A DNA stretch of 64,000 nucleotides, from the NCBI GenBank assembly GCA_036362985.1, contig JAYGXS010000010.1, positions 6,138,722 to 6,202,721 of the forward strand, read 5' to 3'. The DNA is from Ligula intestinalis (Eukaryota; Platyhelminthes; Cestoda; Diphyllobothriidea; Diphyllobothriidae). Below the pieces are notes generated by a model. It searched no databases, had not been told where the DNA came from, and worked only from the letters and a program-made list of their open reading frames with translations. Positions 17,720 through 54,137 of this stretch are shown piece after piece; position 1 is the stretch's first letter, and every line of letters begins with the position of its first letter. The translations under genes and the position numbers were made by a program.

Positions 17720-18058
17720 GGGAGACAAATTGTCCAACACTGGAAAAAAATTAATTTCTTCCTGAGCTTTCGAGCTCCTACAAGAGCCCATCGTCAGATA
17801 GGGAGAAACAGCAATAAATAGGGAAGCTACTTGGACGTGTGTACCATAACCAAAATTTTGAACGTGTAGAAAATCAATAATTGTGTGTTTGTGCCGCCGA
17901 CTTGCCATTGAGGGCTATGTTAACCTGCGCCAGTAGGCAAAATCAACGGTTGAGTTGAAATATTTACAGAAACAGAATCAACAACAAAAAAAATCAAGCA
18001 ACAGTTATGGTGTGAGGGATAGGCAATTAAAAAAGGTCATAGGAGAAAAGGAGGATGA
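17720..18058 (-). mobile_element. 3' end of subfamily A PLE, truncated
   Basis: This matches the 3' untranslated region and terminus of the copy at 26480-27470. Shared minus-strand pieces include TATTGATTTTCTGCACGTTC (CTACACGTTC here), GTTGCTGTTTCTCC and GTTTCTGTAAATATTTC. It is cut off at 18058, exactly where the right arm of the big inverted duplication begins, so the junction is an insertion or rearrangement point. It carries a hammerhead-like motif. Confidence 0.8.
17762..17797 (-). ncRNA. Hammerhead-like ribozyme motif
   Basis: The minus strand reads CTGACGA, T, then a 6-bp stem (GGGCTC with GAGCTC, loop TTGTAG), then GAAAGCTCAG. Both core blocks are intact. There is one extra U between the first core block and stem II compared with the textbook hammerhead. 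Stem III could form only by pairing AGCT with a second molecule. Stem I is weak here. Confidence 0.6.
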
Positions 18059-24795: not shown

Positions 24796-24825
24796 TAAAT
24801 TGACCCAATTGTGAAAAAACTCTAG

Positions 24826-24912
24826 GCGTTTGGCAGGATTTAAACCCACGCATCAGAGAAGGAATTTGCTGGAGGCCAATACTCTAACCGTTAAGCTTCA
24901 AACGGCACAAAT
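24826..24912 (-). repeat. tRNA-like SINE head
   Basis: The reverse complement carries AACGGTTAGAGTATTGG (A box) and GTGGGTTTAAATCCTG (B box), with the TCTCTGAT variable region shared by all four copies. It is degraded and not a functional tRNA gene. Confidence 0.6.
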
Positions 24913-26200: not shown

Positions 26201-26537
26201 ATTGGCCGGATTTAAAGTAACGAACAAATACCATTAAACGTTCTTTTAGTGCCGTTACTGTTGTTGTATGGTAAATCAACAATAAACACATGAGTTTTTT
26301 AACAAAAGTTTTATGCACTTGTTTGTCGCCAGCGCTCGAGCATTCACAAGCTAATGGACTAATAACCAATTGTGTTTCTTCAACCTAGAACCCATTTCCA
26401 TGCAGAAAATGCCAAATAGTTTTACTGGCAAGAAGGTTGGGATATTGGGCCGAAATATTTTACAATGTGAAGCCACCCGCTTAATTTACATCGGTAAAGG
26501 AGACATATGGTCGAACACTGGAACAAAATTTATTTTT

Positions 26538-26575
26538 GCCTGAGCTTTCGAGCTCTTACAAGAGCCCATCGTCAG
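26538..26575 (-). ncRNA. Hammerhead-like ribozyme motif (best preserved)
   Basis: Minus strand: stem I strand CCT, core CTGACGA, an extra T, stem II GGGCTC / GAGCTC with loop TTGTAA, core GAAA, then GCTC and stem I strand AGG. Stem I has 3 bp and stem II 6 bp including one G-U pair. Stem III could form only between two molecules through the self-complementary AGCT. Cleavage would be expected after the CTC. Compared with 40997-41032, stems I and II show paired changes. Hammerheads are known in PLE terminal repeats. Confidence 0.72.
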
Positions 26576-26905
26576 AGGTGGAGAAACAGCAACAAATGTG
26601 GAGCTACTTGGGGCGTGTGTACAATAACTAAAATTTTGAACGTGCAGAAAATCAATAATTGTGTGTGCTGCCGACTTGCCACTGAGGGCTGTGCTAGCCA
26701 GTGCCAGTAGGCAAGAGCGACAAGTTTTGTGGAAATATTTACAGAAATAGAATCGTCAACAAAACAAGTAATAGTTATGGTGGGAGGGATGAGAAATTAA
26801 AAAGTCATAGGAGAAGGGAAGAGAAGTGAGGGATAATGTAGGCTTGGGCGCGAAATGGCCACGTCAGCATCGAAAGTGGGGTGATTATGGAGGATGTTGG
26901 GCCAG

Positions 26906-27439
26906 TTAATTACGGCGGGCGTCTATATAAGATTGTTTGCAAAAGCGTAAGGCCCTGTACGCCGGTGCCAATTCGACACATCTGTTGACCGAATTCTCAT
27001 CCGTGGACCAGGCTTCGATGAATTCTCTGCTCGTCTTGTTTCCCGCATGGGCGAGTACCTTGACTGCAGCGAAGTTAAACTCATGGCCTGTTTCATATGT
27101 GTGTGCTGCAACTTGTGATGATTCGTCGCCTAGTCGCACGGCTTGCTTGTGTTCACCTATACGCGATCCGAGCATGCATTCAGTTTGACCTGTATAATTA
27201 CAGGGACAGTTTAGGCATGGGATGCGATATACTACTCCAGATTGTTTATTCTGCGTGAGCTGGTCTTTTATTTTCATCACTCTGCTGCGCATTGTAGCTT
27301 TGGGTCTGTGTGCAATTCTTACACCTAGTCCCGCAGCGATGCGCTCACTCGCTTCTGAGACGTCTTTTATACATGGCAGGGCGTGCCATATTCCCGGTGG
27401 TTCTTCTGTTTGGGTCCTCCGGGGCCGACGCGTAGGCAT
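26906..27439 (-). CDS. PLE GIY-YIG endonuclease, uninterrupted frame
   Basis: This 177-codon frame has no internal stop. Residues 1-60 form a linker (PPGIWHALPCIKDVSEASER and IAHRPKATMRSRVMKIKDQL). Residues 68-130 form the endonuclease: GVVYRIPCLNCPCNYTGQTE, then GSRIGEHKQAV, SSQVAAHTYETGHEFNF. GIY is VVY and YIG is YTG, with CLNC between them and the paired His of HTYETGH, the CCHH signature of PLE endonucleases. The C terminus has FIEAWSTDENSVNRCVELAP. Intact elements encode this domain as the C-terminal part of an RT protein that makes the target nick. Here no RT precedes it, and the ATG at 27439 is simply the first one in an open frame, so a working protein is doubtful. Confidence 0.75.
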   Translation of the reverse strand: MPTRRPRRTQTEEPPGIWHALPCIKDVSEASERIAAGLGVRIAHRPKATMRSRVMKIKDQLTQNKQSGVVYRIPCLNCPCNYTGQTECMLGSRIGEHKQAVRLGDESSQVAAHTYETGHEFNFAAVKVLAHAGNKTSREFIEAWSTDENSVNRCVELAPAYRALRFCKQSYIDARRN

Positions 27440-27473
27440 CGGTTTATAAATGCTTTTGGATAACCGTTCCGTT

Positions 27474-27553
27474 ACTCGTGAGCCTTTCCACCCTCTTTGC
27501 TCGTGGCTGCCGGCTGTCGGCCCTGCTTATCTCTCGTGGAAACGCTCACGAGT
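27474..27553. repeat. 18-bp inverted repeat flanking a flipped 44-bp segment
   Basis: ACTCGTGAGCCTTTCCAC at 27474-27491 and GTGGAAACGCTCACGAGT at 27536-27553 are inverted repeats with one mismatch. The 44 bases between them (with GGCTGCCGGCTGTCGGCCCT) are in opposite orientation relative to the flanking repeat when compared with 48540-48640. Confidence 0.75.
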
Positions 27554-27800
27554 CACAGAAACGACTTGACACAGTTCAAAAAGACACGAGCAATCCAAAC
27601 ATCCACGAAAATCGATCGGTGCAATCGATCAATGCATGGGTAAATGGTCGTTCACATTTACCTTACATACACAGGAATGCAGACACCTTGCTCTGACAAT
27701 GGAAGCAAGCGGGCTTTTGAAACGTCAGTTGGAATACACTTTGGTCTCAGAAGTCGTCTCCCCTTCTAATTCCTCTTCTGGGGATGATAGAAGGAATATT
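27554..27800 (+). repeat. Interspersed repeat R, copy 1
   Basis: It matches 48612-48890 with shared pieces ACGACTTGACAC, TCGAT(A)GGTGCAATCGA-like sequence, GCAGACACC, GCTCTGACAATGGAA (GCTCTGACGATGAAA in copy 2) and GCTTTTGAAAC. In copy 2 this sequence lies directly upstream of a PLE end with a hammerhead-like motif, so R is probably PLE untranslated region. Confidence 0.65.
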
Positions 27801-28297
27801 TTATCTAGCTCTCGAATTTTCTCATATATTTATAGTATTTTCTAATCAGAAACCAACTTTAGACTTGCCGAATCTCTGGACATGAACATAATCGTAGTAT
27901 ACGCAGCATTTCGTAAACACTCTGTCTAACGCAACATAATAGACCGACTTAATGCGTAAATGGCACAGGGGCAGTCATGAGCAGGACCCTGCCAGACTCG
28001 CATTCGGTTAAGACTGACTCCTTTTTCCTGTACTCATCCAGAGCACAGGATGCTTGACACTTTTGCTGGTGGGCATAAAACCGGGCATTCGCAAACAGTT
28101 TCCTTACACCCAAAGCCGCAGTACGGCCGACTTTGCCATGACCTTTTCGCCGGCATTTCTGTTTTCTCACTACGGGTGGGGGGAGAGGGAAACTTGGTGG
28201 TGTCCATAAACACGTTGCGGTTCTTCAGCTGGCAACGATTTAGCCCCTTGTGCGATGGTCTCAACAGTCGCACGCTATTCTAGGTGTAAGCCAGCTG

Positions 28298-28313
28298 GCC
28301 TGCCTGCCTGCCT
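28298..28313. repeat. Short GCCT simple repeat
   Basis: Four tandem GCCT units (GGCCTGCCTGCCTGCCTGCC). Nothing else is recognised between 27801 and 28560. Confidence 0.6.
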
Positions 28314-28559
28314 GCCGGTGAACTTTACTAATCAGGATCCACGAGCAAGGGACAAACGGGCTTGTTTGCCGGTGGCAGACGAGCAAGTCTGTGTTTGAGA
28401 GCTCATCATATCACACTTCAGTCAGCGCACGCACTCAGACATTAGACACCAGACGAAATAAAGCACAGACTCAATGAAGCAGGGGGTGTGGGCGTTGGAA
28501 ACTCAAGTTATGGCGGCAACATAGTCTGTGAGAATACGACTCGATGGCTGGGACAATAC

Positions 28560-29720
28560 TTTTATTCGTCTGACGTTCCTAGATCCGTCGCAGATTCGTC
28601 ATCAAAGACACAATCAAATAACAGTAATAGATTTGGTACCGTATGCACCAGACTTGGCCGTCTTTATAGAATACAGTCATGACTGCAAACCTATTGCGTC
28701 TATTAACCTTCATTGTCTTTTTGACTGTAGGTAGTCTATTGAACGACATGCGGACTCTGACCTACTGACCTTTCACTATGCGTGGTGGACTACAGCGTGA
28801 TGATTCCCCCATCATCTGGTCCTTCGGTACTGGCGTAGGATGACGCAATGGCCTGTTCGTTACAAAGCGGCGACTTGATTTGGCCAAATTAAGTCTCTAC
28901 ACCAAATATGGATTGGGAAAATCACTGCTCTTGTTGATGGATTGGGGGCCAGTGAACCATGACTCAAGTAGTACTCGGCTCACCCGATTGACACCTCTTG
29001 CGAGAATTTCAGCTTCATCAAATTTGAATGTGTGGCTGGTTCTCGTCGAATGAGCCGCAACTTAAGAATTGGCATCATGTTGCCGCACTGCAGCCGCCTG
29101 TTCGGCAATTTGCGTCCTGAGAAGTCTGCCAGTTTCTCCGACATAGATGTTTTGCTCACAACTGCACCAGATCCTATAGACGACCCCAGATGTTTCCAGC
29201 CGTGACAGTGGGTCTTAAGGTTTCCTTCTATAACGCTTTATGGTTGCCTTCGGCCTGTCTGCGACCCCTACTCCAAGTGGTGCGAGAAGGCGGCCGACTG
29301 CTTCCGATACGTTTTTGACATACGGGATCTCTCGCCAAATGTTGGGGTCGGTGCGACTTTGTTGGCCATCTCTTTTACGCAAGCTATAGTTGACGAATTT
29401 GCGCGAGTAGTCATTTTCTCTGAACATCCCGTCGAATGCATTCTAGCTTGGCAAATGTATCTTATTGTTCGCTGCAGGGCGTCTTAACACGCCGATAGAA
29501 CGTCCTTATGCAACTGCATTTGTGGCTGATTCGGTTACTCCTGTTGTTATTCAGTACTTATATCGTGTTTGTCGCTTTCCAGAGTACTTAAGTCTTGGGA
29601 CCACCGCAATCTTTGTGAGAGACGAGGACACCAAGGAATGCCAGCTGGTTGTTCTCTTCCTCCTCCAGCGGAAAATGAGGAGGCTATTTAGTTTAAGCAA
29701 ACGCCAGGGACAACCAAAAT
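28560..29720 (-). pseudogene. PLE copy: RT tail, linker, GIY-YIG endonuclease
   Basis: Reading the minus strand from 29720: the RT FLDVLV region (antisense to the peptide CQLVVLFLLQRK), a shifted block where the family reads SHKRSCVRTLYRRVETHCSE, then RKFVNYSLRKRDGQQSRTD, VKNVSEAVGRLLAPLGVGVA and ADRPKATIKRYRRKP. After a frameshift at about 29218 come SGVVYRIWCSCEQNIYVGET, RTQIAEQAAAVRQHDANS, a stop, VAAHSTRTSHTFKFDEAEIL and SINKSSDFPNPY. It ends in a hammerhead-like remnant at 28570-28605. The order is the normal PLE order; the RT catalytic core is missing. Confidence 0.85.
28570..28605 (-). ncRNA. Hammerhead-like motif, eroded
   Basis: The core reads TTGATGA (C3 changed) and GGAACGTC (GAAA changed), with a short ATC/GAT stem II and the self-complementary ACGT kept. 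It is at the 3' end of the PLE copy and probably inactive. Confidence 0.5.
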
Positions 29721-29894
29721 AGGCATTTAGAATACTTGTTTTAATAGTGACTGCCATAAGTACATAGAGTTTACCCTGTTTGTAAATTATTGCCAAAGGG
29801 GAGCTCTTCAAAATGATTCGGAGGGCAATTTTGAACCCTATTAATACAGCCGACCTTGGAAGAAGTTTCGTGGATTATGTGTAGTGGGGCTAAT

Positions 29895-29910
29895 GTTAGG
29901 GTTAGGGTTT
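29895..29910 (+). repeat. Two and a half TTAGGG units
   Basis: GTTAGGGTTAGGGTTT is the animal telomere hexamer. The run is too short to be telomeric and could be chance or a relic of repair. Confidence 0.4.
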
Positions 29911-31140
29911 CCTTTAAAAAAGGTAACATCTACTGACAAAGACTTTAGCAAATGGCCGCCTTTTTTCGCTATAACTCTGTGAGCGTGCCTACGTCAACAC
30001 TGTCTATATGCCCAAGTCGTATGTTAGGAAAGGAAGGTGACACGATAGCAGAGAACAATTTACGGCAACATTATCTCTATGCACATCAGCTTCTGTGCGT
30101 GTACCTCAGCGTCCCTGTTGGCAGCTTGATCTTGTTTGCAGCTTGGTCTTCTGTCGTCGGTGGTGCACTCTCGTGTCAATAGCAGTAGCTTGTCTCGGTA
30201 GACAGGATAGCAGATAATAGTTTACCGTCACTGTTTCTGTTTGTACATCAACTCTGTCTTCTGTGTGTCCGGCAGCTCGGTCTTGTCTGCAGCGCGTCCT
30301 GTGTCGGTCAGCAGCATGTCTTCTGTCGTCGGTCTCGTCTCGGTCAGCAGCAGGTCACGGATATTAATTCAATCAGTAGCAGCAGCAGCAATATATCGTG
30401 TCCCCAGCAACTTACCGTGGCCTTGTATCGGTGGCAGCGTATTTAAGGATCAGCGGCCTTTGTTCCCTATCGGCCTCCGTCTGCTAATAACCCATGTGAG
30501 CAGCCATCGTGTGGTGTCCTCAGTGTGACGCTTGGCCCGGTGTTTTTGCCCCTGGCCAGCCGTGACCTCAGACCCCGACCGGCGGCTATCATTCTGTCCT
30601 CACGTATCGGTTCTTTGAAGGTCGCGCTCTTCGCCCATTCTGTATGCGCCCGCTGACATGTTGGCTTCCTTAGTTCTCTTGTCCACAGAACGGCCCGAGT
30701 TATGACTCGTGTGCTGGGCTATCCTAATAGTTTTGCTTGGGTGGGGTGAATGAATGCACTCAGACAGTAGACGCCAGCCTAATTAAATCATAAACAGGAT
30801 AAATGGGGGTGTAAAAAGTGCATACCTAACTAGTCTATGGCTGCTCAATAGTATACTTTATAATGGACGGGAGCGGCGTGCTTTTACGGTAGTTTCGAGG
30901 CCTTTGGGAGACGTTTATGCTTGTTTGGTAAAATAAACGCTAATAAGAAATAAAAGAGGACTTCGGAATGCATACTTTATTCCTGACTGCCATTTAAGCA
31001 TATCCCTTACCCTGCTTGTAAATTATTGCTAATCGGAAGCCCTTCAGATTGTTGGACAAGGGAATTGGGAGCACTGTCAACAATAGAGAAAATGCGCGTT
31101 CCAGTAAACAGTTGAAAGTGACCAACCCTACGCAATTGCA
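29911..31140. other. No recognised gene; TCTTCTGTCGTCGG-like local repetition
   Basis: Imperfect repeats of TCTTCTGTCGTCGG and GGTCAGCAGCA lie at about 30145-30360. Open frames here are short and look like by-products of this repetition. Nothing else is recognised. Confidence 0.4.
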
Positions 31141-31185
31141 CTCCAGAAGAAAAGGATCCGATCACTGGGACAAGAGTTTTATTTG

Positions 31186-31224
31186 CCTGAGGTTTCGGAT
31201 TCCCTCGAGAATCCTTAATCATAG
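31186..31224 (-). ncRNA. Hammerhead-like motif with perfect stem II, broken core
   Basis: Stem II is GGATTC / GAATCC with loop TCGAGG, followed by GAAACCTCAGGC. The first core block has decayed (CTATGATTAA in place of CTGATGA). The ACCT is no longer self-complementary. It lies 3' of the PLE endonuclease at 31289-32050. Confidence 0.5.
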
Positions 31225-31288
31225 GTGATGATAACAAAGTCATGGTCATGCGCAGATAGGGTGGAGACATGCACAGGCTGCACTGTAT

Positions 31289-32050
31289 TTATAGTTCATA
31301 GTGGTCATCCGCGTGTTTGCGATAATTGTTAACTTCTGAAGCCACCGCTTGGGTCTTAATTGATGCGGTTCTGGCTTGACACTTCACGTTCGACTCACTA
31401 ATTGCCACAGTTGCCTTGTCGGCTTTGGATGCGGGCCTGAGAATGGCGTGACAAGTATGCCCGCTGTCATCAGAGTCGTTGCTGCGCCACCCCCTGCCCA
31501 CGTGACTGATTCTTTTGCTCAGGAAGCTTCTCAGTACAGCATATGGGAATGCCAAATCGTTGCGCTTGTTGATGGATTGAGAGAACCATGACTCGAGTAG
31601 CTTGCAGCTCACGCGGTTGTCACCACTTGCGAGGATTTCGGTCTCGTCAAACTTGAAAATACGGCCAGGTTCCGTCGAATGAGCTCCAACCTGGAAGTTC
31701 GCCTCTTTCTTTTTTTCTGCCATTGCATGCTCGGCTATTGCATCCGCAGTTATCTTCTGGTTTCGTTGGCGTAATTTATTTGTGCACAATTGCGTCAGAT
31801 CCGGTAAGTGACCTCAGCCGTTTTCTGCCGTGCCAGTGGGTCTTTCTGTCTCATGAACTAGTGCCTGATGGTTGCTTCTGGGCTGTGCGTAACCCCCAAC
31901 TCCAAGTGGGGTGAGAAGCGGCTGACCGCTTCCCATACATTCTTCACGCATAGAAGAGGTCGCTTAACTTTTGGGCCAGTTGGATATGGCTTCTTCTCTC
32001 ATTTGTATGCATTGGTTGACAAACTTACACGGGGTAACTATTTGCTCTCA
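31289..32050 (-). pseudogene. PLE linker and GIY-YIG endonuclease
   Basis: After a linker with LFYA, HPTWSWG and QKQPSGTSS-like pieces in shifting frames, the frame to 31289 reads IAEHAMAEKKKEANFQVGAH, STEPGRIFKFDETEILASGD and LLESWFSQSINKRNDLAFPY. The GIY and YIG motifs survive only as TYRI and INYANET, out of frame with a stop between. The C-terminal tail, KADKATVAISESNVKCQART, matches the tail of the plus-strand copy at 15967-16512. Confidence 0.85.
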
Positions 32051-32057
32051 GTAACCT

Positions 32058-32424
32058 TCAAAGGTATTGTAATTCAGCAACATTTTCTTCCATTTCGCTG
32101 CAATGCATCTCAACGCACCAGTATAGCGCTTTTACGCAGCTGCGTTTGTGACCGATCAGGTGGTTGCTATTGTACTTCAGGATTCTAGTTTTTAGGCAAC
32201 CATAGTCTTTGCGGCAAATGGGGACATCCAGAAAGGCCGGCTGGTTGTTTTCTTCTTCCTCCATCGTAAATTGAATGTCCGGAAAGAGGATGTTTAGATG
32301 TTTCTTGAATGCAAACATCTGATCCCACTCAATAACGACGAAGGGGGCGCCCACATACCGAAGCTAGAATTTAAGTTTGTGGTGTTGGAAAATCAGCGTT
32401 TCCAACCCTTGCTGTTGTACATTG
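32058..32424 (-). pseudogene. PLE reverse transcriptase catalytic region, active site lost
   Basis: The minus strand reads GLETLIFQHHKLKF, a stop, LRYVGAPFVVIEWDQ, FPDIQFTMEEEENNQPAFLD, VPICRKDYGCLKTRI and RSCVKALYWCVEMHCSEMEE. It aligns with the fragment at 16513-16839, but the YVDD catalytic motif is YVGA, so both aspartates are gone. The stop before LRYV and the loss of upstream RT motifs confirm a dead copy. Confidence 0.88.
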
Positions 32425-32619
32425 ACAGTCTGTGAGATTCACTTTACTGCATGCTTCTATTTGTTACCATGCAACGACGGGATACAGTTAAAAATCCCTC
32501 ACGAAATTGATTCCAATCGATATATCCTGCTGTCAATGCTTTTATGATATTCGTACTGGAGAAAAACTGCTTCAACTATGCATGCGACTGCGGCCCTAGA
32601 AGTTGAGACTGCTGCTCAT

Positions 32620-33110
32620 GATAAGCGCTTAGTTGTCCGTGCGTATCTCATTGAAAATCGTTGGCAGAGCACATGGGAATGGTGGAAGCCATCGGTTAAC
32701 CAACTTTCAAATTGCTTTTGCTCCATAAAATGAAAAGGCAGGGATGTACAGTTTTGAAGCAGTTTTGTGCCTCGGGGTGTGGGACGGCGGATGACACCTT
32801 GTAGTGCCCTAGCAGCCAATTGGAACCCAAGATCGGACGGATGGCGCCTTTCGCCTGTGGTCAGGTGCAGTCCCGGCACCCCCTCTCCGTTCTCACTCAG
32901 TGGTCTGAGCCGCTTACGAACACACCCAGTCTCGCCTTGCCAGGCTTGCGCCAAGGCAACAAATCACAGGCCGACCTTGCCAATGAACGCGCTCTGTATT
33001 CTGGCCTGATTCCTGCGAAGACTGACTTGGGATTCCGCTCAGGCGCGTCGCAGCCGGCGACGCAGCCCTGTCCTACGGGCTTCGCGGTCCTACGACCTGC
33101 AAGACCTATT
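32620..33110. other. GC-rich stretch interrupting the PLE
   Basis: This stretch is distinctly richer in G and C than its surroundings and does not read as PLE in any frame, although it lies where RT motifs 1-4 should be. It has overlapping open frames on both strands (one of 112 codons at 32616-32954, minus), which GC-rich DNA gives by chance. It is probably another repeat inserted into the PLE. I cannot name it. Confidence 0.45.
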
Positions 33111-33189
33111 GGTAACCTTCCCCTCATCCCTTCTGTAAAAAATACACTGTTCCGTCTACTCTGCCTTCCCAAGACTTCTCCTATCTCCT

Positions 33190-33560
33190 AAGGAACCGGG
33201 CCTCGAAGATTGTAGGTGTTAGGGCTAACCGGCTTATCCTTAAGTCCTATATGTCCGTCGGTACGATAACGAGGTCACTGTCTGCTCTGAACTCTTTAAG
33301 TGCCTTACGTTTGACCTTTGAGAAAGCGTCGGGTAGTCAACGTGCCATGAGGCGGGAAGACACCTGTTGACGTATGAGGTTTTTCGTTTCGTCGATCGCT
33401 TCTGTTTGGCTGACACTCTACTCTACTTCAACAACCATATTAGCAGGTCTGGCATCAGCTGTGTTGAGTGAGGCTTCATGCTTTAACACCTGCATTTGCT
33501 CTTCCGTCAGCTTTTTGGATGACAGGTTGTGCACCAGTTTGTCATCGTTTGATTAATTCG
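33190..33560 (-). pseudogene. PLE N-terminal domain
   Basis: The minus strand reads KKLTEEQMQVLKHEASLNTA, DARPANMVVEVE, stop, SVSQTEAIDETKNLIRQQVS, SRLMAR, stop, then ALKEFRADSDLVIVPTDI. This is the conserved region upstream of the RT in PLEs, including the RADxDxVIVPADKG-like block. In-frame stops at E*S and R*L show decay. Confidence 0.85.
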
Positions 33561-33837
33561 GCTGAGGTAGCTTGCGAAACTCAATTTCAAGTGCCCACTC
33601 CCGTTGGCTTTATGGTCTCGGGCTCGTTCGGCCACTCTCTGCTGAAGCAGTTTGGTACCGTTGTCGTTTCTGAACTTAAAGCACTACTCCTTCTCTTCAT
33701 CGAAGCCTCGAGTGACAGTCCTGAAGTATCACTCGGATCATATCTCTGCTGTGCTTGAATGATTTGCGTTTCACCAACTCCGTATTAACCGTACGTCTGT
33801 ACGAAGCACACTTCAGTAAGAAATTATTGTCGAGACA

Positions 33838-33875
33838 CCTGTACAGGAATCGGATCTGTGCATTGAAATGTCAGG
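33838..33875 (+). ncRNA. Eroded hammerhead-like end in inverted position
   Basis: GGAATCGGATCTGTGCATT is followed by GAAATGTCAGGTAAAGTAAAACTCTTGATCC (shown here in part). The sequence after GAAA matches the tails at 16951-16985 and 31170-31195. The first core block is not recognisable. It marks the 5' outer end of the PLE at 31146-33917. Confidence 0.45.
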
Positions 33876-33917
33876 TAAAGTAAAACTCTTGATCCGGTGA
33901 TTGCATCCTCTTCTTCT

Positions 33918-34456
33918 ATTCAGAGCACTCTTAATAGAGCAGCACTTGAAAAAATTTCAGTGTTAGTTTCTGTTAGGGGAACGCATAGGTTAGAGGTTCC
34001 AGCCTGGGACCATTATGTTCACCGGGATCTGCTGAATGACTTCTTGTATGCCAGAGGCTTTAGCGTAATTTAAATCGGCGTGCTTTTTTAAGCGCCATAG
34101 ATGGGCGGTTTTATGACAATAAGCGCACGCTTCCATCACTAATTCCATGCAGGTCACGCACGTCAGAAGCCTAAAGTGTTAAAAAAAGCGAAATCACATC
34201 ACCTCGGACACAAGGCATACATACCTGCAAAACAATTAAAAAACTACATTAGTTGCCAAGCATAACATGCAAGCATCCGTGCATGGAATGACTCCAAACA
34301 AGCAGAGTAACTATGTGCCCTGATCTTGTCTCGTAGACAGTGATTGCTACCTAAATCAAGCACCACATTCTTAAAAATTCAACAGAAAATGAACTAGCTT
34401 TTTATACTTAGGTCCAAAAAACAATTCATTCTGAAGCCTTCCCTATATAGGAGAGA
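33918..34456. other. No recognised feature
   Basis: Mixed AT-rich sequence between two PLE copies of opposite orientation. Nothing recognised. Confidence 0.4.
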
Positions 34457-34830
34457 GTGTCTGAACTCGTTGAAAGTAACTTGGCGCACAAACCAACGAC
34501 TACTACACGCACCGAATTTGTACACCTTAAGGATAGTTTTGCCTATCTCAATGAGAAAGTAGTGATTCAAAAGATCCCATGCGAAACTTATGATACCGTA
34601 TGTCATAGCTCAACGGGAAGGTCCGTCTCCACCGACTGGCAGTGAAGCGACATGACTATATGCCCGAAGTGGTTATGCATAGCCTTGATTTAGGAAACCC
34701 CATCGCATGCGATACAACACGCATAACCAAAGTTTCCCCCTTAAGGAAAGGCCAAGAATTACTTGAGATCATGCACTCCGATGTTTCCTGCATCAACCGA
34801 CATATCGAGTTGGATGCAATGTAGAAAAAT
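34457..34830 (+). pseudogene. GIY-YIG endonuclease of a schistosome-like PLE subfamily
   Basis: The plus strand reads VVIQKIPCETYDTVCHSSTG, then after a frameshift near 34630 RLAVKRHDYMPEVVMHSLDL, GQELLEIMHSDVSCINRHIE and LDAM. PLEs of this subfamily read VYSIxCxxCxxxYIGQTGR, then REFLEAWHSxxxCINRHIELDP. The linker before it (LAHKPTTTTRTEFVHLKDSF) fits as well. YIG has decayed to CHS. It is the only copy of this subfamily I found here. Confidence 0.75.
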
Positions 34831-35894
34831 CTAATAGAATGTTGAAAGAGACGCTGTCCAATCAAAACCGACGAACATAAACCACAACTGCTAATAAATG
34901 CTCAGACAAGGTGATTTTAAATTTTTCCAACCCGAACTGACGGAAATATAGTTTCTTATTAACTATTACACTATTAAGACCAATTATGTATCCACCGTGG
35001 ACTGACGCAAATTGTAAATGCCAGATAGTGCATACGACAGATGACTTTATAATTGTACCAGCATTTTTTAAAAAATTATATTTTTCACTGCATGCACCCC
35101 CAGGTCTGACGGTGACCTGAGGATCCAGGGTCAAAACTTTACTGAATCGACCTACTTGTTTTCCCAAAGAACGGATAGACATTTGCTTCGTGGAGTATGT
35201 ATCCGTCATAATTGACATGATTATTTACCATACTGCCCCTACACGAACCATCTAAAAGCACAGACACGCGCTTCGCAGATATTCTGCTAAACCATGGTAT
35301 AGCCGCAAGGGTTCCCATTCAACCACGAGTCCCCAGAGTTCCCTGTATGCCCCTAGACCCTGCTTGTGTACCGATGCACTCAAAGTCAAACTTGAAAATG
35401 AAAATTCGGTTGTAGATATGACTTCTGTTTTATACGTCCGGAGGACAATGAATCAACGTTAAGGCACGATTTTTTCTGAGTTTACTTTCCACATTCTTTC
35501 AAATCGCATTATTATAAGGAGATCAAAAACCCAAGATACCCTTTACACGTGAACAAATTTAAAGGTGAGTCAATGTGCCTCAAATAGAGAACATAAAATA
35601 ATACCTTACGAATGTGGCAACAAGAGTTTATGTAGCTTAACTCATTAATCCCTACAACCTGCAGGTTTTTTCTATGAACACGGTGGTAATGGGCGAGAAG
35701 TTAGGACACGCAGTGGATAATACTTTAATAAATGCTAAAGGAATTTTTATTTTTCTCTATTAAGAAGTGATGTTGATTTATACCTGTACATTTTCTAATC
35801 TGTATCATCATTTAACTTATTGCGGAAAACCCGATTATCAAATTGCAGGTTTCTTGATATTCCCGATAAATTGAAATCGTGGTAAGAAGGTCGC
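34831..35894. other. No recognised feature
   Basis: Includes a 118-codon open frame on the minus strand (34862-35218) without known motifs. No repeats recognised. Confidence 0.4.
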
Positions 35895-36160
35895 CTACTT
35901 CAGGTGACGTGTGGTCCAACTTATTGTTCTGGAGTTATATAAGTACAGTCCACGGCGCGAAGCACCGCGCACGCCTTCAATTAACATGCGGAAAAACCTG
36001 CTCCCAGTGGCCACGGGAAGCAACTTCGACTACACTTTTTTACTTTGCATTTCTAAAAATTTCCTTGTCTGCATATCATATTTCTTAAACCCATAAAACT
36101 CTTTGACCACCGTTTTTGCAGGACAAAATGCTGGAAGTAGGGGTATATGAGTGGGGCTAC
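35895..36160 (+). repeat. Interspersed repeat H, copy 2
   Basis: Second copy of the repeat at 25925-26200, same orientation, diverged and with small indels. Confidence 0.6.
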
Positions 36161-36339
36161 ACAAGCTACTTTTGCCGAAAGTGTTTTCGACACCAGTCAA
36201 ATTTAATCGTTTATCTTCAAGAAACTTAAAGAAATTCTCAAAATTCTCAAATTTAATTGTGATATTACGTTGGCAAATTTAATACATGCAGAAGTTCGTA
36301 AGCTGAGTATCTTATCAAAGTATTTTCTAAGAGGGAACC

Positions 36340-37010
36340 TTATGGAGGATACTAACAGGCTTGTGAGTTAATTACTTGATGGCACGCCTGTGGGTTGTAA
36401 TCTGCTGAACTTTCATCACGCATAGGGATACTGGGGATGATGATTGCTCGGTCATCGTGCCCTCCGGCACTGCCGATAGACTGCGCGTTGTCCTCTGCGT
36501 TTTCCAAGTGGGGAATTGTTTTTGTCATTTTGGGCCCCTGCATCGACTATGGATTGGGCAGGCCGTTATATTTTTTTATGGAATCGGGTTCCTTGAAATA
36601 TGACTCAAGTAACTCGAACTTGTCGGATTGTCAGCTCTCACGTGAATTTGAGCCTCATATCATTTGAATTTCTTAACAGGCCTCGTTGAATGATCCGCAA
36701 CTGGAGAACTGACTATATTTCTCCGCACTGGTGTCGCCTTCTGGGCAATTCGCGTCTGAAGACGTCTTCCGGTTTGTCTGACGAAGTTGCTGTGTGCACA
36801 ACTGCACCAGCTCCTATAGGCGACTCCAGATATTTCTTCCCGTGGCAGTGGTTCTTTCAGTTTTATTACGTAGCATCTTGTGGTTGCGTCCGGCCTGTGC
36901 GCAACGCTAACTCCAAATGATTCGAGAAGGTGGCCGATGGCCTCCGATATATTTTTGACGGATGAGATCCCCATGTTTGAATTTCCCGTTTCAGTAACTG
37001 CCTTTAACGA
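36340..37010 (-). pseudogene. PLE linker and GIY-YIG endonuclease
   Basis: The minus strand reads GISSVKNISEAIGHLLESFG, VSVAHRPDATTRCYVIKLKE, PLPREEISGVAYRSWCSCAH, SNFVRQTGRRLQTRIAQKAT and SSPVADHSTRPVKKFK, then a stop. GIY is VAY and YIG is FVR. After the stop the domain continues as EAQIHVRADNPTSSSYLSHI and a tail with SIPMRDESSADYNPQ. The RT is absent. Confidence 0.85.
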
Positions 37011-37040
37011 TGAATTGGCGACAAATTTTGACATATCAGA
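37003..37040 (+). ncRNA. Eroded hammerhead-like end in inverted position
   Basis: AACGATGAATTGGCGACAAA, then TTTGACATATCAG and ATGAATATAAATTTGTCCCAGCGATCG (in part). It aligns with the plus-strand arm at 42298-42360, including the TGTCCCAGCGATCG ending. It lies at the 5' side of a minus-strand PLE, as at 33838. Confidence 0.45.
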
Positions 37041-37218
37041 TGAATATAAATTTGTCCCAGCGATCGCATCGACTTATCAGCATTACCTTATGGAAACTTT
37101 TGACTGAAATCAGTGGAAACTTAGTCAAATAAACATTCCTAAAACAGGCCAACATGCGGATCCTGGGAAGCAATTGAGAAGATGTAGAAAGGACCGCTGG
37201 GAAAATGCATTTATTCGC

Positions 37219-37254
37219 CTGACGTCTTCAAATCTGACGCAGATCCATCATCAA
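37219..37254 (-). ncRNA. Hammerhead-like motif, eroded core
   Basis: TTGATGA, T, stem II GGATCT / AGATTT with loop GCGTC, then GAAGACGTCAGGC. C3 and one A of GAAA are changed. The tail GAATAAATGC...TTTTCCCAGCGGTCC is shared with the other copies. Confidence 0.5.
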
Positions 37255-38190
37255 AAATATTAACAGAAAGGGTCTAAACACACACTGTGTTGGAGTATTT
37301 ATAGGACATTTTGATACCACATAAATATGACAACTAACAGCTCCCTGTCGAGGATAATTGTCCGTTTTGTGTGTTAATTAGTTGCTGTATGGCGCACGAG
37401 CTGTAACCTGCTGAAGTTTCATCATATTGACATTGGGCGTGCTGATTGCTTGGCCATGTGGTTAATCGGCGTTGGCTTAAGAAGACGCGTGTCCTGTGCT
37501 TTGGTCAAATTCAACTGCAGCACTGAATAGGTATGGGGCATTTCGTTGCATTGATTTATAGAATGGGGCCTCGCGAACAATGATACTAGTAAGTCGCAAA
37601 TCACATGATTGTCAACACTCGCGAAAATATCGTGATCAGAAAAGTTGAATGTGTGGTCATGCCTTGTCGAAAGGACTAGAACTTGAGACCTCTCGTCATT
37701 TCTCCGTACTGATGCCGCGTGTTTGGCAATTCGCTTCTTGTGGAGTCTTCAATTTTCTCCTACGTAGTTGCTTTGACTGCAAGTGCACCATATCCTATAG
37801 ACACTTCCACTAGGTCTTTCAGTTTTAGTATCTGTCGCCTTATGGCTGCCTCCTGCCTCTGTGCGACTCCAATTCCAAGTGGTGCGAGAAGGCGGCCGAC
37901 GACTAGCGATACAGTTTTGACGTACAGGCTCGCTCGCCAAAATGAAGGGTCAATGCGATTTGTTTGTCCATCTCGTTTACGCATGCACTACTTAAAGAAG
38001 TTGCGCGGGTAGCCATTTTCTGTGAACACCCGTTGAAGATCTTACATTTCGGCAACTTTGTCTTGTGGTTCACAGCAGTGCCTCATAAATCGCCGGTAAA
38101 TCGTCCTTACGCAACCGTATTTGTGGCTGATTGGTTGGTTACTGTTGAATTTTATTGTCGTTTACCTGAAAATGTTGGTCTTTGAGCCTG
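37219..38190 (-). pseudogene. PLE copy: RT tail, linker, GIY-YIG endonuclease, 3' end
   Basis: From 38190 on the minus strand: SHKYGCVRTIYRRFMRHCCE, VFTENGYPRNFFK, MRKRDGQTNRIDPSFWRASL, VVGRLLAPLGIGVAQRQEAA. After a frameshift: SGSVYRIWCTCSQSNYVGEN, stop, KKRIAKHAASVRRNDERSQV, LSTRHDHTFNFSDHDIFASV, PHSINQCNEMPHTYSVLQLN. Both Cys and the YVG are kept. It ends with a hammerhead-like motif at 37219-37254. The RT catalytic core is missing. Confidence 0.87.
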
Positions 38191-38719
38191 TACCGCCAAC
38201 TCTTCAATTCGCGTTTATAGTTCTTTTATGCATTCATCAATTGACCTATTTAGTTCATTTAAACACATTTCCGCCCTCTTTGTTAATTCGAAAAAGGAAA
38301 TTAAGCCCATTAACGCACGACGCCAGCATAGTTTGTGACTCTAGCAAGAACGATTATCCATGATGTTGGCCACTGCAGTCTGCCATAAAAGTGAGCCAAA
38401 GTGGGGAAAAAGAAGGCGTCCGACAATTAGTTAATGTCGCCTCACCGTCACGTTCTCTCGTCGAGTGCGTAGACCTGAAGACCTGCGTTCAGCTTTGTTA
38501 ATTTCGTTTGAAATCAATTTCTGCTCTCGGTGTAGATTCCTTTATTCGAAGTCTATATGCATACTTCAAAATACGATGTATATATTAAGGCTAGTTTATT
38601 TTAGTCACTGCGGATTAACAGTATAATATGCCGACGTCGCAAACATTGTTTGCAGCAAAGACCGGCAAAATACGTGTCCGGGCTTTTACCTAGTACTTAT
38701 AATGCTATTATACTTAATA

Positions 38720-38860
38720 ACTTCGCCTGCTGAGTTGGTCTTCGGCCAAGGCAGCCTTAGTGCCTGCACCCATACTCCATACACGCACAAAATAGAGGGA
38801 GTTAGCCGTATGGTGAATGCCTCTGCCGTCGCCAGTACCCGCGGACGCAGTAACTTGGAG
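38720..38860 (-). repeat. Interspersed repeat K, copy 2
   Basis: On the minus strand GGCGACGGCAGAGGCATTCA and CATACGGCTA match copy 3 at 39885-40000. No gene is recognised in the rest of 38191-39534. Confidence 0.5.
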
Positions 38861-39534
38861 TGTTTCTTCGGCACTTTATGCATGATTCGGAATGCCTCAT
38901 TGAAGTCTATCCGGTTACCGCAATCAATTAAGAGTGCCATACTCACGCTCTATACAAAATGTATCACAACTCAATTAGCCAAACAGGACGGTGCTTTCAC
39001 ATCCGTGTGGATAGCTAGCTAGTTGCTTGCCTTAAATTCCATGAAAAACTTTTGTGTCAGACCTGTTCACTTAACCCACACGCCATTATTCGCATCTGTG
39101 AAGCGGGTTATATTGTTAGAACGACTAGACGAATATCTATACGGACGCCAGAACACTATTCTGCCTTAAGATTCATTTTTCTATTCAACCGTATAAATTT
39201 GTGAAGTGGCCGAAACTTTTGTTAGTTGGGCCTGCTGTACTTTGTCAAAGCAAAACTGACTTTATCGAGCAGCAAATTTAAAGTTGCGGCTGTACGTGTT
39301 GGCCTTGGGCTGATCGATTTTTCTCCGGTGGCTGCTTGGCCATGCGTGTGGATTTAGGCTCGGCGTGATGGCAATTAGTGGTCTGCTCGGTCCCCAATGC
39401 CAGCTTTGTCTGCAAGTCCTGACTTCAATTAGACCATATCCTTTACTTTACTTACGTAATGGCGTAGGATTTTTAGGCCGCAGGGAGCTTCAGATGCATG
39501 TCGACAGAGTTCGCCTCTAACTACCATGCCTCAA

Positions 39535-39850
39535 GCGTCAAGTTTTCAGATTTTGAGGCTCGTCAGCCTACGACGGTCGTTCCTTGAATATCGCAGTCGT
39601 GGCCGGTCTCTCCAACATGTGTTGCAAGCTGTGATTTAGGGTTTATTCTCCGGGCCGCCGCTTTGTGTTCCTGTAGGCGGGTCTGCAATTTGCGTCCTGT
39701 TTCACCAACTTACTTGAAGTCTCCATCATTGTAACGTATTTTGTAGACAACTGCGGGGGTGGCAGTAGGGGGCAGTCTGTCTTTTGGTTGCATCCCTCTG
39801 GCTAAATCAAGGCCTGGCAAATCGCATTTTGATCACGATTTTGGCAGGCA
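39535..39850 (-). pseudogene. GIY-YIG endonuclease of another PLE subfamily
   Basis: The minus strand reads TPAVVYKIRYNDGDFK, stop, VGETGRKLQTRLQEHKAAAR, RINPKSQLATHVGETGHDCD and IQGTTVV. GIY is VVY, the tyrosine of YVG is a stop, and the Cys pair is lost (RYND). The RLQEHK helix and the paired His of THVGETGH are kept. It differs in sequence from all other copies in the window. Confidence 0.82.
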
Positions 39851-39884
39851 CTGGTTAGACATGAGGACAACATTCTGAATATCT

Positions 39885-40000
39885 TTTAAAGTTCCAACGT
39901 CAGCGGATACTTGCAACGGCAGAGGCAGTCGTCATACGGCTACGACCATTTTATGCGCACATGAGGCATTTGTACAGACATAAAGGATCGCTTTCCCTAA
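39885..40000 (+). repeat. Interspersed repeat K, copy 3
   Basis: It carries AACGGCAGAGGCAGTCGTCA and TACGGCTACGACC, and lies directly beside the PLE remnant at 39535-39850. Confidence 0.5.
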
Positions 40001-40104
40001 GACCTACTCTCTATGGATCCTCCATCTGCCTAACATCACTTGCGTCAATAACGACAAGGTTATATGAACTAACTGTCGGACCCATCCCTTCCCTGCCTCA
40101 TGTC

Positions 40105-40290
40105 TGGCATCGTGTTAAGACTAAAATCTCACCCCATGATCTCTGAACACCTTTCTCTCCCTTTCTTACTACTGATTGGTTGCTTAAACGTTTGTTCACT
40201 TTAATTTCTTTCATATTATTGTATTTGCTTGATGGAGAATAATCGAAAGCCTAATTTTTGCCCAACTTACGGAAAGGCATCCTTTGGGAA
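40105..40290 (+). repeat. Interspersed repeat G, copy 2
   Basis: CTTACTACTGATTGGTTGC and TTGCTTGATGGAGAATAATCG match the copy at 61230-61395, in the same orientation. Core strings are more decayed here. Confidence 0.6.
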
Positions 40291-40979
40291 ATAAGTTACT
40301 CTACATTAATACGCGTCCGCAGCTCGCGGAGCATGCAATAATCGATAAGCCAATCATCTGTCGATTACGTCAGTATCCCAGCCAATGACGACCAAGCACG
40401 CGGAAGCGCGTGTTTGCGTAATACGCTAACACGCGCAATGCTATTAGGGCCACCATCATGCTGCGCACGATAACCAATTGTTGTTTGAGGTGTGATAAAA
40501 AGGTGCAGAAATGTTGTCTCTGGCTTAAAATAATGATACAGTTTTAGGTCATGACATTTGACAGTTTTGTCACTTTTTGCAGATGACAACCGTGTGTCAG
40601 ACCCAGAACAGAATCTTCACAGTTGCGCTGTCACAGGTTGTTTCATTTTTTGGACCCAAAACTATCCATTTTGTGTAGTGGATGTTATATATCCCTGCGT
40701 ACGCTTTGCGTTGCATATACCCATTGGCGCCTTGGCAGCTTGGGAGGCTAAAGGTATGCGAAATAAACAAGAAATAGCATGAAGCGTGCCGACTTACCAT
40801 TAAGCTGACAAAACTTCGTTATGTATTTGACAGTGTCTTTATACACAAATGTAGAGAATGGGATTTAAATTTTGTCAGTCTTGGAGCATAAAAACACTTT
40901 ATTTCCAAAACAGCTTTGCGTTTTATTTTATACGAATTATTCTCTGGGTAAAGAAGCAGAAGACTAGTCGAACACCGGA
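40291..40979. other. No recognised feature
   Basis: No gene or repeat recognised in this stretch. Confidence 0.4.
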
Positions 40980-41423
40980 TTGATTTGTGTATTGTTCTGA
41001 GCTTTCGAACTCGTGCAGGAGTCCATCGTCAGAAAACAGGAAACAGCAAAAAAGAGTAGCTTGTTAAAACCTGTGTACAAAACAGTCAACATTTGAACGT
41101 GTAGAAATCAATCACTGTCTGGCGTGGGCGCCGATTGGCCACGTCAGCAACGAAAATGACGCAATTTAATTGTGATGGGTGTCTGGTCGTGACTGTACGT
41201 AAATACGCAATGCTCTGTACGCCGGTGCCAATTTGACACATCGGTTGACTGAATTCCCGTCCGTGGACCAGGCTTGAATCAATTCCCCGCTCGTCTTGTT
41301 TTCGGCATGGGCGAGCACCTTGATGGCCGCGAAGTTAAACTCATGACCTGTTTCATAGGTGTGAGCTGCAACATGCGATAATTCGTCGCGGACATTCTCC
41401 TTCATTCGTAAACTTATTCTCAA
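40980..41423 (-). pseudogene. Subfamily A PLE: truncated endonuclease and 3' end
   Basis: The minus strand reads DELSHVAAHTYETGHEFNFA, AIKVLAHAENKTSGELIQAW and STDGNSVNRCVKLAPAYRAL, nearly identical to the C-terminal half of 26906-27439. The GIY and YIG motifs are missing because the copy is cut off at about 41410. It ends in a hammerhead-like motif. Confidence 0.88.
40997..41032 (-). ncRNA. Hammerhead-like ribozyme motif
   Basis: Minus strand: stem I strand TTTT, core CTGACGA, extra T, stem II GGACTC / GAGTTC with loop CTGCAC, core GAAA, GCTC, stem I strand AGAA. Relative to 26538-26575, the third pair of stem II changes from G-C to A-U and stem I from CCU/AGG to UUUU/AGAA, both keeping pairing. 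This is good evidence for a conserved RNA fold. Confidence 0.72.
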
Positions 41424-41782: not shown

Positions 41783-41987
41783 TTAGTATTCCGGCAAAGA
41801 CTGGGCACCGTTGTACAACTATTTGTAGCTTTTTGGCTGTCGTCAGCTACGAGACCGATGAGTATGAAACTCGGGTATGGCAGCAATTTGAGCGGCTGCA
41901 CTAGAGTCGGCTACCCGTAGCTGACGACGGCTAAAAAGCCAGAAATAGCTATATACCGGTGCCCTAGCTTTACCGGAATACTAATAC
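41783..41987. repeat. Inverted repeat with ~72-bp arms
   Basis: AGTATTCCGGCAAAG at the left pairs with CTTTACCGGAATACT at the right, and CTGTCGTCAGCTACG with CGTAGCTGACGACGG. The loop is about 60 bp. A compact fold-back or MITE is likely. Confidence 0.75.
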
Positions 41988-42201
41988 TTTAACATAAAAA
42001 GCTATGTTACTAACACTTTATTAGTAACATAAAAATTAGTAGCCTTGCGAAAGCACAAAATCCATCGGTCCGAAGTCGCAGGCATTGATCCAAAATGGGT
42101 AATTCTGAAAAAAAAGATCGGTTTACAATCAACCACAATATAGAAGTATGCTTTAAATGAGAAGAAAAGGATTCGATCGCTGTGACAATATGTTTAATCG
42201 C

Positions 42202-42237
42202 CTGACGTTTCGATATCCGTCGCGGATTAATCATCAG
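42202..42237 (-). ncRNA. Hammerhead-like ribozyme motif, both cores intact
   Basis: Minus strand: stem I strand GTCT, core CTGATGA, then TTA, stem II ATCCG / CGGAT with loop CGA, ATC, core GAAA, CGTC, stem I strand AGGC. Stem I has 4 bp with one G-U pair. Stem II is 5 bp with unpaired bases at its base. ACGT is self-complementary. Confidence 0.65.
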
Positions 42238-42297
42238 AGACATGAGTATGAAACAGTAGCAGACCCGTTTCACTTACTGTTTCCTATTCATGTCTCT

Positions 42298-42332
42298 CTT
42301 GACGAATCCGTGACGAATGTTGAAATGTCAAG
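42298..42332 (+). ncRNA. Hammerhead-like motif, eroded, inverted partner
   Basis: TTGACGA, AATCCGTGACGAATGTT, GAAATGTCAAG. GAAA is kept and C3 is changed. It is the mirror partner of 42202-42237. Confidence 0.5.
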
Positions 42333-42629
42333 GGAATAAACATATTGTCCCAGCGATCGAGTCTTTTTCTTCTTAACCTGTTTAATGCTATAAGTGTTAA
42401 TCCGCACTCAGTTACCGTCGTCGGACGATTATGCCTACGCCTCACCCTCGATGACCTGGGTTGATTGGTGCTCGTTTTTTATGTATATACGAGGTGAATC
42501 GGCGGTGTCTTAAGTGCTTAACGTAGGAAGGCAACGTAAACAGAAGGACCAACATTTGTCCAGATTATCTGGTAGCTGTTCACGTAAGTGCATATTGTAA
42601 ATTTAAATTAAGTTCATGCTTACATTACT

Positions 42630-48371: not shown

Positions 48372-48890
48372 TTACAAACACGAGCGGCCATGCGAGTCCC
48401 AGGAAGTAATTGAGAAGAAGAAGACTCGACCACTGGGAAAATACCTTGATGCACATGACGTTTCGACATCCGCCGCGGATTCATCACCAGCTACATTCCA
48501 CCTACCAAGCGCTCCAACAAAGGCTAACATGGGCTCAGAACAGAGCACTAGGTCAGGCGGAGAGAGGGTAGCAGGGCCGACAGCCGGCAGCCGCGAGTAA
48601 AGAGGGCGGAAACGCTCACGAGACGCAATAACGACTTGACACTGCTTCTGTAGGCGCCAGGGAAGGCGCGAGAAATTCAAACAGCCATGGAACTCGAAAG
48701 GTGCAATCGACTGACATATAGATATTAGGCAAAGCAATTGGTTGGACACAATTATCTGACGCGACCAGGAGTACAGACACCACGCTCTGACGATGAAAGT
48801 GAGCACGCTTTTGAAACATCAGCCACAAAAGACATCGGTCCTAGGAATAGTCTCTTCTTTTTTTTCTTCCGCGGATGATGAATCGAATAC
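48372..48890 (-). mobile_element. PLE 3' untranslated region and terminus
   Basis: Repeat R (48612-48890, second copy of 27554-27800) runs on the minus strand into a hammerhead-like terminus at 48454-48490 and a tail AAGGTATTTTCCCAGTGGTCGAGTCTTC (in part) like those at 31146 and 37201. No protein-coding part remains. Confidence 0.7.
48454..48490 (-). ncRNA. Hammerhead-like motif, one core change
   Basis: CTGGTGA (A6 changed to G), T, GA, stem II ATCCG / CGGAT with loop CGG, GTC, then GAAACGTCATG. GAAAC and self-complementary ACGT are intact; stem II can be extended by GA with TC across one bulged G. Confidence 0.55.

Positions 48891-53890: not shown

Positions 53891-54137
<247 letters not shown>

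What the first reader, a model, noticed from the sequence alone, without database searches (positions are those of the whole stretch)
26538..41032. Hammerhead-like ribozymes at PLE ends with paired changes in stems
The sequence shows at least ten copies of a motif at PLE 3' ends: CTGANGA, a hairpin, GAAA and ACGT or AGCT. Comparing 26538-26575 with 40997-41032, stem II changes GGGCTC/GAGCTC to GGACTC/GAGTTC and stem I changes CCU/AGG to UUUU/AGAA, and pairing is kept in both. The tetramer that would make stem III stays self-complementary when it changes (ACGT in some copies, AGCT in others). Hammerheads in Penelope-like elements are known from the literature. It is inference that these still cleave and that they act as dimers.
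Basis: partly seen in the sequence, partly recalled or inferred. Interest (0 to 1): 0.85.

Follow-up and report, generated by a model that had tools for sequence, protein, structure and literature searches.

The report
Hammerhead ribozymes in tapeworm Penelope elements
A tapeworm genome carries thousands of copies of a small RNA motif of a kind known to cut RNA (a hammerhead ribozyme) near the 3' ends of its Penelope-like jumping genes, and its letters have changed in matched pairs in a way that fits cutting by two joined copies; the kind was already known, so this is a clear new example rather than a new system.

Summary
The motif is real and fits a hammerhead. A model built from 68 copies finds 13 in the window at E ≤ 0.01 (4 of them used to build it): 6 with intact core, 7 degraded, so "ten copies" holds only with degraded ones. 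Genome-wide the strict pattern occurs 16,593 times, 188 in the reversed control. On the 68 copies the covariation score is 0.531 (shuffled 0.215, 0 of 500 reach it; slid partners at most 0.168). Cleavage as a homodimer predicts this. Host: a diphyllobothriidean tapeworm, by protein hits. Hammerheads of Penelope-like elements that cleave as dimers are in print (titles and review passages seen; papers not held). Likeness between copies runs 40-80 bases past the cleavage site, so I infer that the inserted RNAs were uncut there. Cleavage is untested. New member of a known kind.

The parts
26536..26581 (-). hammerhead, core intact, stem III AGCU, predicted cleavage after CUC
   Evidence: R1 46.3 bits, E 9.5e-12 (used in building R1); PLE coding ends 339 bases upstream
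40993..41038 (-). hammerhead, core intact, stem III AGCU
   Evidence: R1 45.4 bits, E 1.7e-11 (used in building R1); PLE coding ends 136 bases upstream
17758..17803 (-). hammerhead, core intact, stem III AGCU, stem I weakened
   Evidence: R1 36.9 bits, E 7.4e-9
42198..42243 (-). hammerhead, core intact, stem III ACGU, foot of stem II weakened; left half of a fold-back pair
   Evidence: R1 46.9 bits, E 6.2e-12; sequence
42292..42335 (+). degraded hammerhead, right half of the fold-back pair with 42198-42243
   Evidence: R1 18.1 bits, E 0.0042
48781..48826 (+). hammerhead, core intact, stem III ACAU (not self-complementary)
   Evidence: R1 43.9 bits, E 5.3e-11 (used in building R1)
9073..9118 (-). 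hammerhead, core intact, stem III ACGU, stem II poor
   Evidence: R1 38.5 bits, E 2.3e-9 (used in building R1)
8993..9843 (.). fold-back pair of PLE 3' ends: arms of 335 nt, 82% complementary, hammerhead core intact in the left arm and degraded in the right
27687..27732 (+). degraded hammerhead (CTGACAA), stem III ACGU
   Evidence: R1 32.4 bits, E 1.8e-7
31183..31228 (-). degraded hammerhead
   Evidence: R1 26.4 bits, E 1.3e-5
48451..48496 (-). degraded hammerhead
   Evidence: R1 24.8 bits, E 3.6e-5
35100..35146 (+). degraded hammerhead
   Evidence: R1 22.1 bits, E 2.5e-4
51582..51628 (-). degraded hammerhead
   Evidence: R1 19.4 bits, E 0.0017
28566..28611 (-). degraded hammerhead
   Evidence: R1 16.9 bits, E 0.0099
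26906..27526 (-). open reading frame (206 aa) with the PLE C-terminal GIY-YIG-like endonuclease region, upstream of the hammerhead at 26536-26581
   Evidence: 76% identity over 78% to a Sparganum proliferum protein; Pfam GIY-YIG only at E 0.08, below its cut-off
41190..41387 (-). PLE endonuclease-region fragment upstream of the hammerhead at 40993-41038
   Evidence: tblastn 68% identity, E 9.6e-25

Best explanation
These are type I hammerhead ribozymes with stem III reduced to one self-complementary tetramer (A-N-N-U), carried near the 3' end, in what corresponds to the terminal repeat (pLTR), of several families of endonuclease-containing Penelope-like elements of a diphyllobothriidean tapeworm. 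Two copies pair through the tetramer to make a shared 4-bp stem III, either two repeats of one transcript or two transcripts, and the RNA is cut just after the base that follows the tetramer (H17). Shown here: the core, stems I and II kept by paired changes, three self-complementary tetramers, and the place downstream of PLE coding. Inferred: cleavage, dimer action, and use in the element's cycle. Genomic copies extend past the cut site, so I infer that the RNAs that became insertions were not cut there and that the ribozyme acts on transcripts (unit-length processing or turnover) rather than making the inserted end.
For: Genome-wide count 16,593 against 188 in the reversed control, 32,295 against 5,909 for the looser pattern. 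Covariation on 68 copies: 76.1% of cells paired against 56.1 (sd 1.3) shuffled; 166 cells changed on both sides against 81.1; score 0.531 against 0.215; 0 of 500 shuffles reach any of these. Sliding the partners by one column gives 41.4-43.9% and 0.14-0.17. Stem III N1-N2 in the 68: CG 28, AU 18, GC 11, UA or wobble 4, unpaired 7; in the first 100 places listed, 63 of 82 of fitting length are self-complementary, 29.3 expected under independence. The class follows the family: 8 changes on a flank tree of 100 self-complementary copies, shuffled mean 44.4, minimum 36. All three classes have members with PLE coding upstream. Stem I pair 2 is C-G in most copies and G-C in most AAUU copies.
Against: RNAalifold predicts no pair on the same alignment. 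The number of pairs with a change on both sides (11 of 11) is reached by 22 of 500 shuffles. Stem I is short: its fourth pair forms in 29 of 68. Stem II is often interrupted: 55 of 100 listed copies have three or fewer unbroken pairs from its foot; with one bulge allowed 67 of 82 have five or six of six. All 12 ACGU, AGCU and ACAU monomers folded prefer a hairpin that pairs the core with the strand after the tetramer, not the hammerhead; of 3 AAUU monomers one folds as stems I and II. No Rfam hammerhead family matches the window to E 10. 19 of 82 lack a self-complementary tetramer. One extra base stands between the core and stem II; its effect is unknown. The expected counts ignore kinship.
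Confidence: 0.83

Rival explanations
1. Hammerheads, but acting as single molecules helped by the element's own protein, as reported for an Anolis element; the tetramer's self-complementarity is a side effect.
For: In Anolis the PLE hammerhead showed no cleavage without PLE protein, and hammerhead mutants did not affect insertion in vitro (PMC11167929, passages read). Copies run past the cut site here.
Against: A single molecule needs only the A-U pair of the tetramer; it gives no reason why N1 and N2 should be complementary in three different ways.
Confidence: 0.15
2. Plain hairpin at a repeat end, kept as a DNA or RNA palindrome (CUGA pairing with UCAG), not a ribozyme.
For: Lowest-energy fold of 12 of 12 ACGU, AGCU and ACAU monomers folded pairs the core with the strand after the tetramer.
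Against: AAUU copies mostly read UCAC or UUAC there, which shortens or breaks that pairing (one of three folded keeps UGA/UCA), yet keep core and stems; stem I pairs covary on both flanks of the core.
Confidence: 0.04
3. Relics: the families once needed the ribozyme, but no living lineage uses it; likeness reflects recent copying only.
For: No stop-to-stop frame over 252 aa in the window, PLE pieces change frame, and 7 of 13 window copies have a degraded core.
Against: Paired changes distinguish families, so pairing was kept while the source elements diverged.
Confidence: 0.1

Closest known systems
Small hammerhead variants of Penelope-like elements (Cervera and de la Peña 2014; Lünse, Weinberg and Breaker 2017)
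   Same: minimal type I hammerheads with little or no helix III, in pLTRs of Penelope-like elements, said to cleave or possibly cleave as dimers (from passages and reference titles in PMC7761336, and PMC6155905; the two papers are not held)
   Different: tapeworm host; an extra base, mostly pyrimidine, before stem II; three self-complementary tetramers in one genome. Whether the earlier papers describe these points I could not check.
Hammerhead of the Anolis element PAc (PMC11167929, passages)
   Same: hammerhead at the pLTR-ORF junction of a Penelope-like element
   Different: its cleavage needed protein; no biochemistry was done here
SMalpha and Sjalpha SINE-like hammerheads of schistosomes (PMC8490949, passages) and metazoan retrozymes (PMC7229834, passages)
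   Same: type I hammerheads in non-autonomous animal elements; they resemble the second hammerhead class seen here in L001-L008
   Different: canonical, with fuller stems; the PLE copies of this finding have only the tetramer as stem III
A viroid hammerhead with an extra core nucleotide (title of De la Peña and Flores 2001 seen in a reference list)
   Same: an extra nucleotide in the core
   Different: unrelated replicon; that its position is the same is recalled, not checked

Membership tests
Hammerhead ribozyme | conserved core CUGANGA ... GAAA ... U-H | tested here: met
   asked for by the pattern: 16,593 places against 188 in the reversed control; 6 intact in the window
Hammerhead ribozyme | stems I and II kept by compensatory change | tested here: met
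   10 of 10 pairs of stems I and II have changes on both sides; 0 of 500 shuffles reach the covariation score of the whole structure. Against: RNAalifold found none
Hammerhead ribozyme | stem II directly after CUGANGA | tested here: not met
   first pair forms in 72 of 81 if one base is left out and in 1 of 81 if not. An extra core base is in print for one viroid hammerhead (title), so I do not take this as excluding membership
Hammerhead ribozyme | site-specific self-cleavage | not testable with these tools
   needs in-vitro transcription
PLE small hammerhead variants | located in a Penelope-like element | tested here: met
   36 of 81 sites have sense PLE coding upstream, 9 antisense only, 36 none; the ORF at 26906-27526 matches tapeworm proteins of that kind
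PLE small hammerhead variants | stem III reduced | tested here: met
   the tetramer is part of the search pattern; it is self-complementary in 63 of 82 and pairs, wobble included, in 61 of 68 (61 of 70 with the two rows left out before that test)
PLE small hammerhead variants | cleaves as a dimer | not testable with these tools
   sequence signature only
Rfam hammerhead families | reaches an Rfam gathering score | tested here: not met
   no hammerhead match in the window to E 10; RF02275 matches 30 other places of the genome, none over its cut-off

The most novel reading that the evidence does not exclude
The stem III tetramer is a self-recognition code: ACGU, AGCU and AAUU pair with themselves and not with each other, so each PLE family cuts only with its own kind, and families that share a nucleus have diverged to mutually incompatible tetramers, each switch needing two coordinated changes.
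Probability: 0.2. Interest if true: 0.62.

Novelty: new member of a known kind. Interest (0 to 1): 0.38.

Why it matters
One genome with thousands of copies, about a dozen stem II types (my reading) and three tetramers is a natural mutagenesis of a ribozyme thought to work as a dimer. It offers ready-made pairs of RNAs to test whether the dimer is obligatory and whether families are insulated from one another. The activity and role of these ribozymes in living cells are called 'still a mystery' in print (PMC7761336, passage). Where genomic copies end argues that cleavage does not make the inserted 3' end.

Tried and rejected
Plain hairpin: rejected mainly because AAUU copies shorten or break the CUGA/UCAG pairing. 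Cleavage products as the inserted molecules: of 144 places with PLE sequence just past the cut site in the fetched loci and the window, 123 have a GAAA-like core just upstream by a loose text test and 21 do not; by eye several of the 21 are degraded hammerheads, repeats of one place or shifted matches, and one (L038) joins close to the cut site. Most of these loci had been fetched because they hold a hammerhead, so this is weak; the unbiased test did not complete. Head-to-head pairs as a sign of RNA dimers: among neighbours within 2 kb in two capped listings 19 of 32 are divergent, 7 convergent, 6 direct. Of six composites printed, four (L022, L086, L116, L124) read by eye as close fold-backs; L027 and L033 share less. 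Head-to-head inverted pLTRs with palindromic junctions, TSDs and an optional 31-bp tail are described for rotifer PLEs (PMC3846280, passages), so I dropped this as new. Single-linkage clustering merged families and gave no usable test. The protein tree rests on 25 fragments and places some oddly; I count no switches on it. Genome-wide counts for ACGU, AGCU and AUAU and for a SINE-PLE fusion were asked and never answered.
Full report
Setting. The hits of the ORF at 26906-27526 (minus) are named Sparganum proliferum, Schistocephalus solidus, Dibothriocephalus latus or Spirometra erinaceieuropaei (52 proteins with E ≤ 0.001 among 175 candidates, best 76% identity over 78%), so I take the host to be a diphyllobothriidean tapeworm; the species is not known. 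The genome held is 644 Mb in 2,377 contigs, the window lies on C10. For S. proliferum, Penelope elements are reported as 9.95% of the assembly (PMC8166898, passages read).

Observation. The motif at the two named places is real and on the minus strand. Six PLE-type copies in the window have an exact core. A covariance model built from 68 copies (R1), four of them from the window, gives 13 matches at E ≤ 0.01, those 6 and 7 degraded ones. 'At least ten' is right only with degraded copies. A stricter filter that also asks for stems finds 3 in the window and 0 in each of 6 shuffles; at one core mismatch 4, and 0 or 1 in the shuffles. That filter misses three core-intact copies: 9073-9118 and 42198-42243 for stem II, 17758-17803 for stem I.

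Genome-wide. CTGANGA-N14-30-GAAANNTCAG occurs 16,593 times against 188 for the pattern read backwards; without the last three bases and with H 32,295 against 5,909; with AATT 3,712 against 600. The tool lists only the first places; samples below come from the first few Mb of contig C1 (up to 10.3 Mb for the AATT pieces), a few loci apart, and from the window.

Covariation. 83 core matches with flanks were collected from loci and window without any filter on pairing; 2 with a 15-16 base middle were dropped, 81 kept. Many loci were fetched with a pattern that fixes CAG after the tetramer, and six pieces and twenty were picked as AATT. With the 40 added pieces, 119 sites had 40 bases upstream and 60 downstream, 116 kept by length. 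For the test 68 were used: near-duplicates were thinned, and the rows of L018 and L049, which looked doubtful to me and both lack a self-complementary tetramer, were left out. On the MAFFT alignment, which knows no structure, the hammerhead pairs give 76.1% of cells paired (shuffles 56.1, sd 1.3), 166 cells changed on both sides (81.1), 43 further pair types (35.3), score 0.531 (0.215), each reached by 0 of 500 shuffles; 11 of 11 pairs have a change on both sides, which 22 of 500 shuffles reach. Partners slid by one to three columns give scores of 0.073-0.168. Shuffles ignore kinship; the slid controls keep it. Against: RNAalifold predicts no pair on this alignment, which I put down to short stems, a bulge in some families and mixed families. 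Stem I is about three pairs long (its fourth pair forms in 29 of 68), and stem II is broken within three pairs of its foot in 55 of 100 listed copies, though 67 of 82 reach five or six of six pairs if one bulge is allowed.

Stem III. In the first 100 places, 82 have a 19-22 base middle; their N1N2 are CG 37, GC 13, AT 12, TA 1, others 19: 63 of 82 self-complementary, 29.3 expected if independent (kinship ignored). The 18 of other length, mostly chance by look, give 7 of 18. The class follows the family: 8 Fitch changes on a flank tree of the 100 copies among 116 with CG, GC or AT, shuffled mean 44.4, minimum 36; deep nodes are weak, so I claim no number of switches. Most AAUU copies have stem I ..GU/AC.. 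where the others have ..CU/AG.., and some have PLE coding upstream.

Extra base. The first pair of stem II forms in 72 of 81 copies if one base after CUGANGA is left out (T 55, C 23, A 3) and in 1 of 81 if it is not. An extra core nucleotide is in print for a viroid hammerhead (title seen in a reference list); whether PLE hammerheads elsewhere have it I could not check.

Place in the element. 36 of 81 sites have sense PLE coding upstream, 32 of them at 65-600 bases; 9 have antisense coding only, 36 none. Past the cut site the mean frequency of the commonest letter, in steps of 20, is 0.91, 0.91, then 0.55 (9 copies); 0.74, 0.71, 0.63, then 0.46 (14); 0.77, 0.69, 0.73, 0.63, then 0.47 (18); 0.89, 0.85, then 0.62 and slowly falling (6). 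Likeness thus ends at about 40-80 bases; two of the four groups had been picked by letters in that stretch. AATAAA a few bases past the cut and a CTTCTT stretch near the end recur, by eye. In the 30 loci, where nothing past the cut was asked for, 26 carry family-like sequence past it and 4 look like chance matches, by eye. I infer that the RNA that was inserted ran through the site uncut. In the Anolis element hammerhead mutants did not affect insertion in vitro (PMC11167929, passages).

Mechanism. A lone molecule closes a two-base loop poorly (established knowledge of RNA stems); two molecules with a self-complementary tetramer make a 4-bp stem III. PLE hammerheads are reported to cleave as dimers (title seen). 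I therefore hold dimeric cleavage most likely; it is inferred. All 12 ACGU, AGCU and ACAU monomers folded prefer a hairpin that hides the core; of 3 AAUU monomers one folds as stems I and II. A ribozyme that is off until paired would suit this, but that is speculation.

Known or new. In the held library no paper joins hammerhead ribozyme, Penelope and tapeworm (40 papers hold two of the three, 20 listed, none of these all three, and papers with more terms are listed first); hammerhead with Penelope-like gives 22; hammerhead, cestode and retrotransposon gives one, on another subject by title and the start of its abstract. The two key papers are not held, so absence from print is not established. 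I file it as a new member of a known kind.

Noticed in passing
L001-L008; window 41867-41947 (+) and 23524-23594 (-) as old relatives: A second hammerhead class, canonical type I without the extra base: stem II GACCU/AGGUC in L001-L007, stem III octamer AUACGUAU (AUACAUAU in L003), behind a stretch that reads by eye like tRNA A and B boxes, so SINE-like as in schistosomes. L008 is divergent with AAGCUU. The window copy at 41867 (73% identity) has AUAGCUAU, again self-complementary.
   Followed up: partly
L006 near 1593: The SINE-type hammerhead is followed by a tail like that of PLE 3' ends (55 bases match other loci, best E 1.8e-12). One case; it may mean that PLE enzymes mobilise the SINE, or be chance adjacency.
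   Followed up: partly
window 8993-9843 and about 42160-42370; L022, L086, L116, L124; less clearly L027, L033: Hammerhead-bearing 3' ends in head-to-head pairs, several as close fold-backs. In 2 of 6 composites read by eye a repeat of 12 (L086) or 8 (L033) bases lies outside, like a target duplication, with extra bases at one end. Fits the known PLE inverted pLTR with tail.
   Followed up: partly
past the cut site in many families: A second stretch alike across families about 15-30 bases past the cut (TTGTCCCAGCGATCG, TTGATCCGGTGCTCG, TTTCCCAAAGA), by eye; possibly where reverse transcription starts.
   Followed up: no
window 53890-54116: AGT trinucleotide array of about 76 units.
   Followed up: no
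window 24825-24905, 44344-44424, 44629-44709: tRNA-like matches below Rfam's cut-off, in repeats; perhaps SINEs.
   Followed up: no
window 828-2255 and 18054-19481: Inverted repeat of 1.4 kb, 98% complementary, 16 kb apart; perhaps a recent duplication or mobile element.
   Followed up: no
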